A stretch of 64,000 nt of DNA from Hawksworthiomyces lignivorus (lineage: Eukaryota > Ascomycota > Sordariomycetes > Ophiostomatales > Ophiostomataceae), in the NCBI GenBank assembly GCA_002917075.1, contig NTMA01000010.1, positions 619,538-683,537 on the forward strand. Reading direction: 5' to 3'. How positions within the stretch are numbered: the first letter of the stretch is position 1; each line of letters opens with the position of its first letter. The translations under genes and the position numbers were made by a program. Shown piece by piece: positions 44,656 through 52,800 of this stretch. A model generated the notes under the pieces. The model had not been told where the DNA came from and ran no database searches. It saw nothing but the letters and a program-made list of their open reading frames with translations.

Positions 44656-45993
44656 ATGCAGGGCTTCAACATGGGACGTTATGTCCCGCCGGACCAGGAG
44701 GGTCTGACGTCGGGCAACCGGCTGCACGGCACGCGCGCGCAGAAGACCAACGCGGCGGGTGTGCCGATCGTGCGCTTCGAGATGCCCTTCGCCGTCTGGT
44801 GCGACGGCTGCGAGGCGCAGTCGGCGAAGAAGCAGCCGGTGCTGATCGGGCAGGGCGTGCGCTTCAACGCCGAGAAGCACCGCACGGGCGCCTACTACAG
44901 CACGCCCATCTGGACGTTCCGCATGCGCCACCCGGCCTGCGGCACGTGGCTGGAGATCCGCACCGACCCGGCGACGACCGTGTACGTGGTGGTATCGGGC
45001 GGGCGGCGCCGGCGGGAGTACGACGACGACGACGACGAAGCAGGAGGAGGACTGGACCCCGCCGCGGCCGCGGCCGCATCCGCCGCGGCTTTGGCGGGGA
45101 CGGCGGCGCCGGACAGCGAGGTGGACCGCCTGGACGCGTTCGACCGCCTGGAGCGGACCATTGCGCACCGCGCTGAGGCGACGGCGGCGGCGACGGCGTC
45201 CGCGCAGGCGCAGCAGCGCATCGACGCGCTCTCGCGGGCTAGCGCGCGCCAGTGGCAGGACCCCTACGCGCGCAACCGGGCGCTGCGGGCGGCGTTCCGC
45301 GAGGGGCGCCACGCGCGCGAGCGGACCGCAGCCGACGACGACGGCCTGCGGGCGCGGCTGGGCGGCCTGAGCGAGGACCTGGTCCTGCTGCCCGCCACGG
45401 CCGAAGACGCGCGGTATGCGGCGCTGGTGGACTTTGGGAGCCGCAGAGGCGGCAGCGGTGGCGAGACGCCCTCGGCTGTGGCGGACCGGCGGACCCTGGC
45501 TCGGCCGCTGTTCGCCCAGAGCAGCGACGAGGACGCGGAGCGGCAAAAAGCCAAGAACGAAGGCAGCGGCGGCTCGGACGCGCCCCAAGGACGGTCTTCG
45601 ACGGCCAAGACGAGACCGGCGACACCGCCAACTTCGCGCAGCAACGCGTACGCGCCGACGACGCGGGAGGCAAAGCGCAGGCAGTCGATCCGGGATCATC
45701 TGGCGTCCACGGTGCTGGCCAACACGCGGCTGTCAACCGATCCGTTTCTGGGGACGCTGGGCTGGCAGGGCGGTGGAGCCGGTAGCGGCAGCAGCGGCAA
45801 CAGCGGGGCATCTACGCCTCGGCTCCCGGGTGTGAAGCGAAAGCGCGCAGAAGAGGACACGCCTGTCACGCGATCAATTGAGAAGGACGGCGAAGGCAGC
45901 AGCTCCAACGACGGCGATAGCAGCAGAGCAAAATCGCCCAAGAAAGCTCCGCCGCCCGCAGCAGTGACACTCGTCAACTACGACTCGGACTAA
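44656..45993 (+). CDS. CCDC130/Yju2B-type splicing factor (CWC16 family)
   Basis: Single-exon gene of 445 residues. It opens with MQGFNMGRYVPPDQEG, the usual fungal CCDC130/Cwf16 start. The CWC16 zinc domain has MPFAVWCDGC (C49, C52), QGVRFNAEKH, YYSTPIWTFRMRHPAC (C95) and EIRTDPATTVYVV. These proteins bind the spliceosome around the catalytic steps, so a nuclear pre-mRNA splicing role is expected. A stretch of about 8 extra residues (AKKQPVLI area) follows C52 compared with animal proteins. The C-terminal 300 residues are low-complexity, rich in Ala, Arg, Ser and Glu, with a DDDDDE tract at about 118 and basic patches suitable for nuclear import. The gene is exceptionally GC-rich, which produces long false frames on the other strand. 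It faces UBC8 convergently, 633 nt away. Confidence 0.93.
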   Translation: MQGFNMGRYVPPDQEGLTSGNRLHGTRAQKTNAAGVPIVRFEMPFAVWCDGCEAQSAKKQPVLIGQGVRFNAEKHRTGAYYSTPIWTFRMRHPACGTWLEIRTDPATTVYVVVSGGRRRREYDDDDDEAGGGLDPAAAAAASAAALAGTAAPDSEVDRLDAFDRLERTIAHRAEATAAATASAQAQQRIDALSRASARQWQDPYARNRALRAAFREGRHARERTAADDDGLRARLGGLSEDLVLLPATAEDARYAALVDFGSRRGGSGGETPSAVADRRTLARPLFAQSSDEDAERQKAKNEGSGGSDAPQGRSSTAKTRPATPPTSRSNAYAPTTREAKRRQSIRDHLASTVLANTRLSTDPFLGTLGWQGGGAGSGSSGNSGASTPRLPGVKRKRAEEDTPVTRSIEKDGEGSSSNDGDSSRAKSPKKAPPPAAVTLVNYDSD

Positions 45994-46626
45994 AGATGAT
46001 ATGCCTTGTATAGCCATTTTAATGTGTTTCGGTCATTGGAACTAGACTTATTTTATATTTTATTCATGATACCCAATAGAATTTTGCTTTCCACATTATG
46101 CATCGCGTCAAGCTGCGCCCCTCTTCCACTTCCGTGCAGTTGTTCCTGCGATCCGTCCAACATTGTTTGATTGTATCTTAAATTGTAAATAATATCTCAG
46201 AAGCCCAGTCGAAGTAAACAAGAAACAAAAGTTACAAATGTAGCCAACAAGAAGGCTGGGGATGATTGACAAAGGTAAAACGTGCCGCCGCTTCATGGAA
46301 GCAGATACTGGGTAGTCGCCACATCCTCCCTCCCCTTCCCTCACTCATAGCTTATCCTACTTGCTCCAGTTCCAATGCCTCTCCGATTATGTTGATATCC
46401 TCCCAATCCAAGTCTGATGCGCCAGATAAAAGCTGAAAAATGAGAAAAAGAAGACGCAATTGTGGGATGTAGAAGACTTTGCTGCTTGCCCACGCCAATG
46501 AAAAATAGACGGCCATGCCATCGCCGAGAGCCAAATGGTGAAACGAAAAGGGGGTCATGGAACACCGATAAGTCAAAAGAAAAACAAACAGAAAACGGAA
46601 AATCAGAGCTCCCAAGTCGCCGGCTT
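45994..46626. other. Convergent spacer between the CCDC130-like and UBC8 genes
   Basis: A 633-nt AT-rich spacer holding both 3' untranslated regions. No coding sequence is recognised. Confidence 0.6.
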
Positions 46627-47890
46627 TCATACATCATCCATCTGGCCGGCTGGCTCATCGTCATCGTCGCCAAAGCTGCCTACAGATGACATGTCGTCAT
46701 CATCCTCTGACTCGGCACCAGCATCGTCGGCTGCGTCCTTGCTTGCGTATTTTTGCACGTATTCTGCGGCTGGTCAGAGAACTAGGACCCTGGAGAGAGG
46801 AGAGCTAGATATGGCGAAATTGAGGGCGTGCCTACCTTTGACTTTCACATCGTAGTTCTTTGGCTCCCGCATCAACAGCGCAGCCGCCTCGCCGTTAAGA
46901 GGATCAGTGGGGTTCGGGTACCGCAGAAGTTGAGGCAGGAAGACTTCAAAGATATTGATCATGTCATACATAGGCGACCACGTCTGGTTGATGACATCGA
47001 GGCAGACAGAGCCAGAAAGCTCGTCGATATTGGGGTGGAAGATGCGGTTTACGAAACCAATGCTAGGTGATTTGTACGGGTACTGGTCGGGGAGTTCGAC
47101 ATGGACCTTCCAAACACCGCCTTCAAAAGGGGCTATTCATGATATTAGCAGCGGATCTCTTATTGTACGAAGTTACAAGCCGTCTCTGGGCTCGTCACGA
47201 GGGTTGCGTTGTGTTTGACCGTACTTTCTGCAGGTCCTTTGAAACGGACATAGAATTCTTGCCTAAAATACGGGCACTGGTGTCAGGACAGCACAAATTC
47301 GACAGAGTAGAACAGACTCGTCTGCCAGTCTGATATGCCGGCGTAGATGAGTGGTTTGGAGCGCGAATCGAAGAACGAAGGAGCTTACACTACAGAAGTT
47401 GCAGGTGTTAGAATCCACGAAAATAAGTTCTGGGCTAAAGTTCACATAAAAAGGCAACGCTGGGAAAGCAAGAGCAGGAGACTGACTGTTGTCATTGACT
47501 AGTGTGACCTCATAGTCACTCATCAACCTTAAAGAAAGGTTAGCAGACTGCAAAAAGGAGGGAAGAAAGGGAAGCAGAGCAGCCGAAAGGGAGATCGTAG
47601 AGTGTCACGGGGGCTGGACTATGGAGGCAAGCAGTTCGTACATCCTAAAAAGAGAGAGAAGTTTTCGTTAGTATGACTGGGAGCCCTAACAAAAAAGAGG
47701 TAAAGCAGAAGACCTGGAGACCGCTCCAAGTTCCGCAGCGGAGAGGGTGAACAAACTTCATGACCTATGCAGACGAGAACGATTAGCGAGAAAGAACGAA
47801 GAAGCATTTCGAAAGCGGCGCCAGAAAATGCAAGACATATAAATCAATAGAGCATACATCAGTCTCAATACGGCGGCGAGGGCTACTCAT
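46627..47890 (-). CDS. ubc8: Ubiquitin-conjugating enzyme E2, UBC8/UBE2H type, with micro-exons
   Basis: Seven exons by my reconstruction: 47890..47858, 47764..47757 (8 nt), 47527..47487, 47389 (1 nt), 47262..47225, 47132..46836 and 46763..46627. Coding total is 555 nt, giving 184 residues. The protein starts [21 protein letters not shown], continues [16 protein letters not shown], and has the E2 core with [15 protein letters not shown] (active-site C84) and [20 protein letters not shown]. It ends in the acidic tail typical of this subfamily ([19 protein letters not shown]). Yeast Ubc8 supplies ubiquitin to the GID ligase that degrades gluconeogenic enzymes. One leucine of the usual KLLMSDY is absent at the exon 2/3 join. 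Introns carry good branch points (GCTAAT, GCTAAC, TCTAAC, CTGAC). The gene identity is certain; the tiny exons are inferred from frame and family conservation. Confidence 0.93.
47389..47389 (-). other. Putative single-nucleotide exon of UBC8
   Basis: The conserved methionine in NDN-M-QEF is spelled by A (end of exon 3), T (47389) and G (start of exon 5). The T sits between an acceptor CTTCTGTAG, with branch TTCTAACACC about 20 nt upstream, and a donor GTAAGC. The next acceptor is ATTTTAG, with branch CCTGACACC. Without this base the downstream frame is lost. Confidence 0.7.
47757..47764 (-). other. 8-nt micro-exon of UBC8
   Basis: GTCATGAA supplies Val, Met and two bases of Lys of the conserved ETDVMKL start. 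It is preceded by GCTAATCG...CTGCATAG (branch point and acceptor of a 93-nt intron) and followed by the donor GTTTGT of a 229-nt intron. Confidence 0.75.
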
Positions 47891-49836
47891 CGTGACGGTT
47901 AGACGGCTTGCTGCTGTCTGAAGCTTGGGGGTGTTTAATTCCGGATCTAGAGCAAACTAAGAAGCGATGAAGCAGGAGGAAAACCTGGTCGAAGGGCTCC
48001 TGAATGCCGTCAAGTTGATCAAAGACTTGTAAAATTACTCTGGCGAGATCGTGGACTAGGTAAAGTTGGGCTGCGAGATCGAGAGCTCGTCAACGAGAGA
48101 TATATGAACAGAGACAGAGAGAGCGCAAGCGCGGGGAAACGGCGACGGAGGAGTCAGTCAGGCGACAAGTGGGCTATCAGTCGCTATCGGCAACGAAGGC
48201 GTCGGCTACGAAGAGATGGGTGATTGGAGGGCTGCAGGTGGCTAGTATGCTGTTCTTGGTTGGGCTGCAAAACTTTGAGTTTCAAAATGAAGTCCAAAAG
48301 AGAGAAAAAAAAAGAGAAAAGAAAGGCAAAATGTCGGAATGGCTAAGCAGAGCGAATCTACAGTGCAAGAAGAAAGAGAAACAGTCAGATTATCCGTGAG
48401 CTCCACCCGCAGAATGATACCATTTCAATGTCAGTGTTGGCTACTGTCGGGCTGCAGGGAGGGGAGGTACAGATGTCACATGGACTGGTACCACTGCTGG
48501 GCGACGCTTTTCTCCACTAACTATACTTGGCGGTAGAGGGGCGATTAAGCAGGCTCGCAGGCGGGCAGCCTAGTGTAATAAACGCTGAGTTTAAAGATGC
48601 CTATCTTTCCTTAGCATACTCGTAGATATGTACAAGCATAGTCGCAGATGACTCATCTAGCCGTTTCCGATATGGGAACCCAAAGGAGAGAAGCGCTGGT
48701 CGCAGTGTAAGATACGGGTATATTGCACTCATTACGTCATTGCTGTTTCGGTCTGGACTATTTCCAGTGGATAGTTTCGCTCGGCATTGTCCGGAGTTCA
48801 CACATATCGTAAGCTCAGCGTCCCGAAGCCTCTGTTACTGTCGTTCGATTAACAACAAGCACATCTCTGTGGGATGTCCTACCACGCCTACCTACAAAAG
48901 TATTGAGTAGCCTCCTAACCGCTCACTAAAATAATCTCTCCACAGTTTGTACTGCCGTGAAGCGCACATGTGCTGCGGCTCGACATGGATGCAGTGCATC
49001 GTGTGTTTCTGGTCCCTCTCTTCCGCACCGCATCTTAGAACACGAAGAAAAGAAGTCTTTTATTGTCAAACAAGAATATTTTCTCAACAGTAAGACGAAA
49101 GTATCAATAAACTGGATGGTTGCGCTGTGTGCGCAACGCCCTTTGACCGATTGGCGTTATGCATCACTTACTTAATCTCAGCATTCGTTGGCAAGCACCG
49201 AAATCGCCAGCAGGTGAAAGCTTTCTACAGCTCACTGATTTTTATGGCTATGAAGAAGTCATTTGTTACATATATACTATGACCTCACCGGTTATGTTAG
49301 TATCAGGTATACATGCTTCGAGGTAGGATACTTGCATGAGTGGACATTTCTCATGAGATGAAATAATGGGCACAGGGAAACCCCAAATTGGCAGGAGCGA
49401 TGTTCGCCGTTTGCTCTTTCCGAGAAAGGCCTGAAAGAACCGAGATTCGTGGCACATCTACAGACCTGTTAAGCATGTTCATTTCATATCTTGCTTCTCT
49501 ATTTCGTATTAGAAAAGTTTCTCTCCTAAGTATCTTACGCATCTGATATACGGCATCTATGATCTTCATCGTTTCGTTTTCCAACAACTATTGCAGTCTG
49601 ATTCACCAAATGCTGAGATCTCATTGTGGAAACCGAAATAAAATCCTACTCTGAATAAATATCAGTCATCTCAGTGCAATTTATTTTCATTCTCTTTTAA
49701 AATGTTTTCATCCTTCTCGGGAGTCTCCCGATTATTCCTTGACTGATTCTTCTACAACCCGCCTCCTCCGCTTGCTCCACGTTTATCTCTGTCTCATCAC
49801 GGGCAATATCTATTAGCTTTCAGATTCTCCTTTAAA
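47891..49836. other. Divergent region upstream of UBC8 and Dicer-like 1
   Basis: Nearly 2 kb of promoter DNA for two divergent genes. A purine tract (AGAGAAAAAAAAAGAG) lies near 48300, and TACTCGTA at 48617. The 130 nt before the Dicer start are pyrimidine-rich. No coding sequence is supported. Confidence 0.6.
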
Positions 49837-52800
49837 ATGGAACACGCTTTTTTGCTGCCATCTAGTGCAGGAAAGCATGCCCAAGCACTTCTTGGCTCCG
49901 ATGCATCTTCCACACCAAAACTGGATGATACTCTTGCGCCTCTGGCTAAACTATCCGCGCAACCTGGTAATAGTAAGATTGAAGGTGCTAGGATCCTAAA
50001 TAGCATGAGGATGCAACCGAAAGGCTCTGTGCAGTTCCAATATGATGCAGAATTCGCAAGAGAGAATCAAGGCGGGGAGGAAGAAGAAGATGACGAAGGC
50101 GATGCTTTGGTGGCCTCTCAACATGGCCTAGCAAAAGCATTTAGCCACGCACAGAAGAAGCGTGTCGATTATATAGCTTTTGACACATGGTTGGGACAGA
50201 ACCGGGACAAGATCACAAAGACTGCACAAAAAGCCGTCGATGCTTTGTGCGATGAAGACAAGACGTCCGCTGCCCTGGTAAGGGACTTTGAAAGCGCCAA
50301 GATTATCGAAAGCCCACGCGACTACCAAGTCGAGCTGTTCGAAAAGGCGAAGAAGAAAAACATCATCGCGGTCCTAGACACGGGCTCCGGAAAGACGCTA
50401 ATTGCCGCTCTTCTACTCCGACATACTCTCGACAAAGAGCTAGATGACCGGTCCCAAGGCAAACCAGGCCGCGTCTCCTTCTTTTTGGTTGACAAAGTCG
50501 CACTTGTATTTCAGCAGCATGCCGTACTTGAATGCAATTTACACCATCCCGTTGCCAGATTCTGCGGCGACAAGTCAGATCTGCGGTGGTCTTCAAAGAC
50601 CTTCTGGGACGACACCTTTGAGGCGCACATGGTCGTCGTGTGCACTGCTGACATTCTTCTCAAATGTTTGCATCACTCCTACATTCGCATGGATCAGATC
50701 AATCTTCTCATCTTTGACGAGGCCCACCATACAAAAAAGAACCATTCCTATGCACGAATTATCAAGGATTTCTACTCGCAAGAGATCGATTTAGACAACA
50801 GACCAAAGATATTTGGCATGACTGCGTCGCCCGTAGATGCCCGAACTAACGTAACACAAGCTGCCCAAGAACTAGAAGCTTTGTTGCACAGTGAAATTGT
50901 GACCGCAGCGAATGAATCTCTTCTTCACGCAGTGGGTAAGCGGAAGACAGAGCGCATCCTATACTACCACATGGTTCTGCGGCCACCTCAAACTCAGCTT
51001 ATGGAATCCTTGTACCGACTTATGGGGAGCACGAAGCTTTTTGCCAAGAATTTCCAGTTTGCTGATGCAAGCCTGTCCACACTTGGGCCTTGGATCGTCG
51101 ACCGCTTTTGGCAGATCCTGTTCCGGTCCGGTGAGTTCACTAAACAAGAAGCAAGAGCGGAAATTGAGGAGTCGAGGTTGGAAGACGATAATCTTATAAT
51201 CCAGTATCCGTCCGTGGAAAACTTGGGTCATGAGTTTAATAATAGGTTCAACGATGTCTACAACGTGGGAAGCGCAGCAGATGAAACTATACAATGCAGT
51301 GCCAATGTGGCTGCTTTGCGAGCAGCCAATCGTCTGGTTCAATCGCACACATTTGTTCCGCCGGCCATCTCGCTTCTTTCTAATAAAGTCGTGCGACTGC
51401 GAGAAGCCCTCTTTGACGAATTCACTAAGCCGGGAGGGGGTAACACACGATGCATTGTGTTTGTAGACCAGCGTTATACTGCTATACTACTAGCGGATCT
51501 CTTTCAACATTCCCAAATGGAGATTCCAAATCTTCAAACTGGCGTGCTGGTATGTGCAATTTTGTATATTTAAAAGAATAGTCTCTATTCTGACACTAGA
51601 ATTTTGTTGCAGATTGGTGGAGGTTCCTCAGATATGGGAAAGAATTCATTCCGCACCCAGCTTTTGACCATCTCAAAATTCAAACACGGCCAGATCAACT
51701 GCCTGTTTGCTACATCTATTGCGGAAGAGGGCTTGGACATTCCCGACTGCAATTTCATTATTCGCTTTGATCTATATCATACAATGATACAGTATATTCA
51801 GTCTCGTGGCAGGGCTCGCCACCAAGAGTCGGTGTACATTCACATGGCCGAACTGGGAAACCTAGATCACAATCGCCAGCTGACCGAAAACAAGGCAAGC
51901 GAAGAGAAAATGAAAGATTTCTGCAACTCGCTTCCTAGCGACCGAAAACTAGAAGGGAATGATTTGAACATGGATTACTTCCTACGCCATGAAGTTGACC
52001 AGCAATCGTTCGTGGTGCCTTCGACGAACGCGAAGCTGACATACCGATCCAGTCTCGTCCTGCTTGCCCAGTATGTCTCGACTCTTCCTGAGCCAAAAGA
52101 AGGCGCGCTCAGAGCTGAGTACTCCGTATTTCATACCATGGATGGGTTTGTTTGTGAAGTTTCTCTGCCTTCGTCTTCACCTATCCGCCATGCAACTGGT
52201 CGACCACACAGACGAAAGCAAATGGCAAAATGTGCAGCTGCCTTTTCCATGTGCCTTCAGCTGTACCAGAAGAAGTACATTGACAAACACTTAAAGCCCT
52301 TTTTTGCATCAAAGTTACCTGCTATGAGGAACGCCCGGTTGGCTGTCAGCTCCAGAAAGCAGGATAAATACAAGATGCGTATCAAGCCTACAATGTGGTC
52401 TATTCTCGGAACTCCATCCCAGCTCCACGCAACTGTACTACGGCTCAGCTTGCCTGAATCTATGCGGCAGCCGTGTCGCCCGTTGGTTTTGCTAACCAGG
52501 TATCCCATGCCAAGACTTCCACGTTTCCCCTTATATTTCGGGAAGGGAAGGGATTCTCAAGCAGAATGCATACCCGTAGCACTGCCGATGGCACCAACAG
52601 CTGCCGAGCTGCATCTTATGACAGTGCATACGCTTCGCGCATTCCAAGATGTCTTCAGCAAGGAATATAATGGAACTCCTGCGGATTTACCATATTTCAT
52701 TGGTCCTGGCATTGGACAACATCATGATTGTTACTTAAAGGATGACACAGATGCCCGTTCAGTTTTAGACTGGGAGAATCTGCGGCTCGTCCTCGAAAGA

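What the first reader, a model, noticed from the sequence alone, without database searches (positions are those of the whole stretch)
47225..47527. Single-nucleotide exon in the UBC8 gene
Reading the minus strand, exon 3 ends AAC-A at a GTCAGT donor and exon 5 begins G-CAA-GAA-TTC after TTTTAG. Direct joining shifts the frame. A lone T at 47389, flanked by CTTCTGTAG and GTAAGC, each intron with its own CTAAC or CTGAC branch point, restores ATG. That is the Met conserved in NDN-M-QEF of Ubc8 orthologues, and the total then divides by three. A 1-nt exon is known in plant APC11; I am not aware of one being described for a fungal E2. Exons this small are invisible to gene predictors, so the gene is probably mis-annotated in related genomes.
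Basis: partly seen in the sequence, partly recalled or inferred. Interest (0 to 1): 0.88.

Follow-up and report, generated by a model that had tools for sequence, protein, structure and literature searches.

The report
One-base exon in fungal ubiquitin gene

Summary
The minus-strand gene at 47890-46627 encodes Ubc8/UBE2H. Its exons fit only if a lone T (47389) is spliced between AACA|GTCAGT and TTTTAG|G, giving NDN-M-QEF. Of 34 in-frame splice models enumerated, only this one gives that sequence. Such a site with good signals turns up in 25 of 20,000 shuffles. The CDS is eight exons: 33, 8, 3, 41, 1, 38, 297, 137 nt. Relatives agree: 52 of 52 proteins from short contigs (probably transcripts) have the Met at the 1-nt site and the extra residue at the 3-nt site, while 71 of 82 genome annotations in Pezizomycotina are wrong at the 1-nt site, against 0 of 41 outside. 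Five of five long Fusarium mis-annotations read back to exactly one AG|T|GT site with introns of 47-56 nt. The structure probably dates to the Pezizomycotina ancestor. One-nt exons are already published in plant APC11 and VPS55 and in Fusarium CYP621A; none in an E2 was found. No RNA of this organism and no genomic DNA of a relative was seen.

The parts
47858..47890 (-). exon 1, 33 nt, [11 protein letters not shown]
   Evidence: GTATGC donor follows
47757..47764 (-). exon 2, 8 nt, GTCATGAA
   Evidence: GCATAG acceptor, GTTTGT donor
   Evidence: CTAACGAAAACTTCTCTCTCTTTTTAG|GAT|GTACGA; (A/G)AT with these signals in 0 of 20000 shuffles; a residue (42 Met, 10 Leu) is present here in 52 of 52 transcript-like relatives
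47487..47527 (-). exon 4, 41 nt, (G)TTGATGAGTGACTATG...AATGACAACA; ends with the A of the ATG codon
47390..47486 (-). intron 4, 97 nt, GTCAGT...CTAAC...CTTCTGTAG (branch point-like CTAAC at 47411-47407)
47389..47389 (-). exon 5, 1 nt, T: middle base of the Met codon in NDN-M-QEF
47263..47388 (-). intron 5, 126 nt, GTAAGC...CTGAC...TATTTTAG (branch point-like CTGAC at 47286-47282)
47225..47262 (-). exon 6, 38 nt; starts with the G of the ATG codon, then [12 protein letters not shown]
46836..47132 (-). exon 7, 297 nt, UBC core with HPN and SGSVCLDV
46627..46763 (-). exon 8, 137 nt with stop, acidic C-terminal tail

Best explanation
The gene is UBC8 (UBE2H-type ubiquitin-conjugating enzyme; in yeast the E2 of the GID/CTLH ligase, recalled) of a sordariomycete in or near Ophiostomatales. 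Its first 124 coding bases are cut into six exons of 33, 8, 3, 41, 1 and 38 nt. The methionine codon of NDN-M-QEF is split over three exons, A | T | G, and the 3-nt exon GAT supplies two bases of the methionine codon in MK-M-LM. Shown: the signals, the frame, the uniqueness of the model among those enumerated, and the matching protein sequence in relatives. Inferred: introns 4 and 5 each have a complete donor, branch point and acceptor and are removed one after the other by intron definition. A 1-nt exon can hardly hold acceptor-bound and donor-bound factors at the same time, so splicing should be sequential; neither order destroys the other intron's signals. Inferred from relatives' proteins: the 1-nt exon is ancestral to Pezizomycotina and is usually lost by gene predictors.
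For: Sequence and frame. Enumeration of 4 one-intron and 30 two-intron in-frame models: one gives VNDNMQEFYV, and it is the only two-intron model whose donors are both of standard type. Shuffles: 25 of 20,000 for the 1-nt exon, 0 of 20,000 for the 3-nt exon. The best solved relative (8pmq_E, yeast Ubc8 by recall) aligns DVMKLLMSD...NDSMQEF without a gap at either site. 52 of 52 transcript-like relatives have M-Q-E or M-S-E at the 1-nt site and a residue at the 3-nt site (closest P0002, 96%, longest contig 1663 nt). P0022 (longest contig 2660 nt) is identical over the core to the Ilyonectria destructans annotation P0029, yet reads [20 protein letters not shown] where the annotation reads MKLMSDYEV...NDN-TPFLPTDTSSTSNRSSR-QEF. 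Annotations in Pezizomycotina: 71 of 82 wrong at the 1-nt site; outside: 0 of 41. 13 annotations show NDNS-X-QEF, which is what a donor moved 4 nt downstream (A|GTNNGT to AGTNN|GT) gives; they fall in Sordario-, Dothideo-, Leotio-, Eurotio- and Pezizomycetes. 5 of 5 Fusarium annotations that keep the whole interval read back to exactly one YAG|T|GTRNG site with introns of 49/56 or 47/52 nt and branch points (residue shuffles 2 to 26 of 2,000).
Against: No RNA read of this organism and no genomic DNA of a relative could be read (searches found none). Transcript-like status is inferred from source label and contig length, and the taxonomy of those 52 is unknown. 11 of 82 Pezizomycotina annotations read right at the 1-nt site; whether they carry the 1-nt exon or lost introns is unknown, and the 3 Lecanoro-/Lichinomycete rows are right at both sites. 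Five annotations read NDNRQEF, which my slip types do not explain. Human UBE2H has Leu, not Met, here and a one-residue gap just before it. The donor statistic from 264 kb of the same genome is weak: GTCAGT 6/77 and GTAAGC 6/97 against GTCTCC 5/143 and a base rate of 0.0375, while three other donors of the model are at or below base rate (GTACGA 4/117, GTTTGT 4/165, GTACGG 2/88); position-by-position enrichment is near 1.
Confidence: 0.94

Rival explanations
1. One intron with the donor 4 nt downstream, CA|GTCTCC at 47482, giving NDNSQQEF: no tiny exon.
For: In frame. Rostrohypoxylon annotation P0051 reads exactly NDNSQQEF, and 13 of 82 Pezizomycotina annotations have the NDNSXQEF form.
Against: GTCTCC lacks the A4 and G5 usual in fungal donors (recalled) and is at base rate in this genome (weak). 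X differs between species as the donor's bases 3-4 would, so it looks like read-through intron. It adds a residue that 52 of 52 transcript-like relatives lack and loses the conserved Met. It leaves CTAAC...TAG|T|GTAAGC unexplained.
Confidence: 0.03
2. One intron from GTCAGT to the acceptor 5 nt inside the exon (GCAAG|AATTC), giving NDNKFYV.
For: In frame with a good donor; 9 of 82 Pezizomycotina annotations read NDNK-F.
Against: Deletes the conserved M-Q-E. Seen in 0 of 52 transcript-like relatives.
Confidence: 0.02
3. A base lost by sequencing error or a recent mutation makes a normal single intron look out of frame; the T is a coincidence.
For: One-base indels are common errors; no second read set was seen.
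Against: Annotations of many independently sequenced relatives show the same difficulty at this codon, and five Fusarium annotations read back to an AG|T|GT site.
Confidence: 0.01

Closest known systems
APC11 1-nt exon, land plants (Guo and Liu 2015, PMC4674806; Yu et al. 2022, PMC8831610)
   Same: 1-nt exon between two GT-AG introns, needed for frame, missing from annotations, conserved over a large clade.
   Different: Different kingdom and gene; proved by cDNA and mutated constructs, which is lacking here.
VPS55 1-nt exon, land plants (PMC8831610)
   Same: Conserved 1-nt exon with a conserved GTRAGT donor, unannotated in the plants examined there.
   Different: Transcripts with and without it in some early-branching land plants; other gene.
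CYP621A 1-nt exon, Fusarium (Nelson and Syed 2026, PMC12940212)
   Same: Filamentous ascomycete; 1-nt exon supplies the middle base of a conserved codon (phase one to phase two); mis-annotated; shown by SRA reads.
   Different: One P450 subfamily in Fusarium; base G; no 3-nt exon is mentioned in the parts read. UBC8 is a core gene and the signature spans Pezizomycotina.
Recursive (zero-nt exon) splice sites (recalled)
   Same: Acceptor and donor abut, and removal of the interval must be stepwise.
   Different: Here one base, T, stays in the mRNA and is needed for the frame.

Membership tests
spliceosomal 1-nt exon | single base directly flanked by AG and GT splice signals | tested here: met
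   CTTCTGTAG|T|GTAAGC at 47389
spliceosomal 1-nt exon | flanking exons out of frame by exactly one base, restored by it | tested here: met
spliceosomal 1-nt exon | each side a complete intron (length, donor, branch point, acceptor) | tested here: met
   97 and 126 nt; CTAAC and CTGAC with their A 18 and 20 nt before the end of the intron
spliceosomal 1-nt exon | conserved in orthologous genes | tested here: inconclusive
   strong indirect evidence from relatives' proteins; no relative's genomic DNA read
spliceosomal 1-nt exon | cDNA of the same organism contains the base | not testable with these tools
   no RNA data for this organism
UBC8/UBE2H E2 enzymes | UBC core with HPN and catalytic Cys, UBE2H-type N-terminus and acidic tail | tested here: met
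   best PDB sequence matches 8pmq_E (1.5e-71, E2-24 kDa) and UBE2H 8pjn, 2z5d; listed homologues carry PF00179; HPN and Cys read
recursive splice site (zero-nt exon) | AG|GT with no base retained | tested here: not met
   AG-T-GT; the T is needed for frame

The most novel reading that the evidence does not exclude
UBC8 of the ancestor of all Pezizomycotina already carried a 1-nt exon and a 3-nt exon 41 coding bases apart, and both were kept across Pezizo-, Eurotio-, Dothideo-, Leotio- and Sordariomycetes. This would be the first ancient 1-nt exon known in fungi, comparable in depth to plant APC11 and VPS55, with the correct protein absent from most annotated genomes.
Probability: 0.75. Interest if true: 0.82.

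Novelty: new member of a known kind. Interest (0 to 1): 0.74.

Why it matters
It adds a core-gene case to a handful of 1-nt exons, probably one several hundred million years old (age recalled, not dated here). It suggests that fungal spliceosomes handle 3-nt and 1-nt exons close together in one transcript, which makes the lower size limit and the order of splicing testable in genetically tractable fungi. It also predicts that the Ubc8 protein is wrong in most annotated filamentous ascomycetes (71 of 82 examined), which affects ortholog sets, structural work on the GID/CTLH ligase and training of gene predictors.

Tried and rejected
Fungal genomic DNA of relatives was sought in genome contigs and viral contigs by protein alignment and by DNA pattern: 47 and 35 stretches matched a peptide pattern, but none encoded a relative, and the DNA pattern matched nothing. 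A donor score from 264 kb of the same genome points the right way for GTCAGT over GTCTCC but is too weak to weigh. Reading back three annotations that keep only intron 4 (P0066, P0072, P0083) is consistent with YAG|T|G, but residue shuffles match in 387 to 648 of 2,000, so it counts for little. The binomial values ignore shared ancestry and are not used. The Rfam search of 46400-48200 gave two weak matches (19.3 and 18.8 bits, gathering scores 45 and 40) over the stop codon, none in introns 1-7. An intronless second copy as the source of the right proteins was looked for in this genome only: the coding DNA matches once, and other protein hits are E2 paralogues of at most 47% identity. A recount mended a parse failure: outside Pezizomycotina 1, not 2, of 41 annotations is wrong at the 3-nt site. 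No structure prediction was run, because it could not tell the splice models apart.

Full report
What is there. On the minus strand, 47890-46627, lies a complete UBC8/UBE2H gene. Spliced as 33, 8, 3, 41, 1, 38, 297 and 137 nt it gives 558 nt, 185 residues and a stop (the 3-nt exon adds one residue to the 184-residue model). The best solved relatives by sequence are 8pmq_E (E2-24 kDa; yeast Ubc8 by recall) and UBE2H. One copy was found in the held 43.7-Mb genome.

The 1-nt exon. Exon 4 ends AAC A|GTCAGT (47486) and exon 6 begins TTTTAG|G CAA GAA TTC (47262). Joined directly, the frame is lost. The 224-nt interval holds two AG-N-GT sites, one of them CTTCTGTAG|T|GTAAGC with the T at 47389. I enumerated models with the first donor from 12 nt before the exon edge to 60 nt after it, acceptors up to 12 nt into exon 6, introns of at least 40 nt and a middle exon of at most 30 nt. 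Four one-intron and 30 two-intron models stay in frame. One gives VNDNMQEFYV, and it is the only two-intron model with donors GT[ACG][AT]G and GTRNG (a pattern chosen wide enough to admit GTCAGT). In dinucleotide shuffles of the interval, YAG-T-GTRNG with a CTRAY before its acceptor and both introns at least 45 nt appears in 25 of 20,000; for any base in place of T, 56 of 20,000.

The 3-nt exon. Other UBC8 proteins have one more residue here (VMKLLMSD in 8pmq_E; VMKMLMSD in many relatives). The 229-nt intron contains CTAACGAAAACTTCTCTCTCTTTTTAG|GAT|GTACGA, and the rest ends CTAACCTTTCTTTAAG. GAT at 47644-47642 restores MK-M-LM. (A/G)AT with YAG, GTRNG and a branch point appears in 0 of 20,000 shuffles (2 of 20,000 without the branch point; for any three bases 20 of 20,000). 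A Beauveria annotation (P0031) reads VMKMYDAPNEYPL, which fits GAT|GTRNG with the donor read through.

Evidence from relatives. Two searches listed 182 distinct proteins (the best 120 of 6,068 and of 6,021 shown). I dropped 7 before counting: plants P0001 and P0117, P0048 (source merc), P0057 and P0113 (mixed sources), P0153 (uniref only), P0173 (annotated on a 1,062-nt contig). Of the other 175, 52 come only from jgi, lgn or ena, with a longest contig of 0.9-3.3 kb in 51 and 7.3 kb in one (P0016). I take these as transcript assemblies: an uninterrupted 185-codon frame cannot come from a gene cut like this one, though it could come from an intronless gene. Their taxonomy is unknown and some are probably not Pezizomycotina. 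All 52 have Met followed by QE or SE at the 1-nt site, and a residue at the 3-nt site, Met in 42 and Leu in 10. Of 82 annotated Pezizomycotina proteins, 71 are wrong at the 1-nt site and 49 at the 3-nt site (one of them, P0112, simply starts later); 7 are right at both. Of 41 annotated fungi outside Pezizomycotina, 0 are wrong at the 1-nt site and 1 at the 3-nt site. Class labels for most rows are recalled; seven lineages were looked up.

The mis-annotations carry information. Thirteen read NDNS-X-QEF with X = K, E, M, Q, T or L. That is what a donor A|GTNNGT moved 4 nt downstream gives, X being read from donor bases 3 and 4; the window's own slip would be S-Q. They include Talaromyces, Drepanopeziza, Pseudocercospora and Tuber, so the border A|GT seems shared by five classes. 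Nine read NDNK-F, the acceptor slip to GCAAG|AATTC, which one search also finds in the window. Of 70 parsed wrong inserts, 36 start with S (AGT) and 29 end R before QE or SE (AGG), as retained A|GT and AG|G borders would give; relatedness makes these counts non-independent. Five Fusarium annotations keep the whole interval in frame (inserts of at least 30 residues from S to R; all that met this were tested). Each is compatible with exactly one YAG|T|GTRNG site, with introns of 49/56 nt (two rows of one species) or 47/52 nt (three rows) and branch points for both; residue shuffles reach this in 2 to 26 of 2,000. P0022, longest contig 2,660 nt, is identical over the core to the Ilyonectria destructans annotation P0029, yet has both extra methionines where the annotation has neither.

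Not explained: five annotations reading NDNRQEF (Dothistroma, Monilinia, Ascochyta, Baudoinia, Terfezia), and why 11 of 82 Pezizomycotina annotations, among them the 3 Lecanoro-/Lichinomycete rows (P0096, P0126, P0131), are right at this site. They may have the exon modelled from RNA, or may have lost introns.

Donor statistic. In 264 kb of the same genome, GTCAGT is followed by a CTRAC...YAG end in 6 of 77 cases and GTAAGC in 6 of 97, GTCTCC in 5 of 143, base rate 0.0375; but GTACGA (4 of 117), GTTTGT (4 of 165) and GTACGG (2 of 88), which the model also uses, are at or below base rate, and single positions show hardly any enrichment. This test has little power and decides nothing.

Mechanism. 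Both introns have their own donor, branch point and acceptor, so removal in two steps by intron definition is expected; this is inference. The T belongs to neither intron, so either order leaves the second intron intact.

What is known. One-nt exons are in print for plant APC11 (PMC4674806, first of three parts read), plant APC11 and VPS55 (PMC8831610, passages), and Fusarium CYP621A with SRA reads, which calls itself the second example and the first in a fungal gene (PMC12940212, parts 1 and 2 of 3 read). Mitochondrial cases are a group II intron pair in rnl in a relative of Ophiostoma ips (PMC12308204, passages) and placozoan cox1 (PMC5436844, search listing). Ten full-text searches of openly licensed papers, judged by their listings, showed none in an E2 gene. 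This is therefore a new member of a known kind, unusual for its likely depth, for sitting in a core gene, and for its 3-nt companion.

Noticed in passing
window 44656-45993 (+): Intronless 445-aa Saf4/CWC16-type (PF04502 in its homologues) splicing-associated protein next to UBC8, tail to tail. Consecutive locus tags suggest the pair is kept in Anthostomella, Monosporascus and Annulohypoxylon. Most of the closest named relatives are Sporothrix (54-59% identity), which places the organism in or near Ophiostomatales.
   Followed up: partly
window 47642-47644 (-): 3-nt exon GAT in the same gene, with its own flanking signals; skipped as VMKL-MSD in 28 of 82 Pezizomycotina annotations.
   Followed up: yes
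window 47757-47764 (-): 8-nt exon GTCATGAA; five introns interrupt the first 124 coding bases of UBC8 and a sixth follows them (with the 3-nt exon).
   Followed up: partly
window 49747-51573 (+): Open frame with a Dicer-like helicase N-terminus, beyond the 5' end of UBC8 on the other strand (named by eye).
   Followed up: no
P0071: Short-contig UBC8 whose frame begins with a stretch of UBC8 C-terminal sequence before the normal start, as if a tandem or circular assembly (one search shows the start).
   Followed up: no
P0153: A UBC8 listed under Anthurium amnicola (a plant) reads like early-branching fungi, probably contamination.
   Followed up: no
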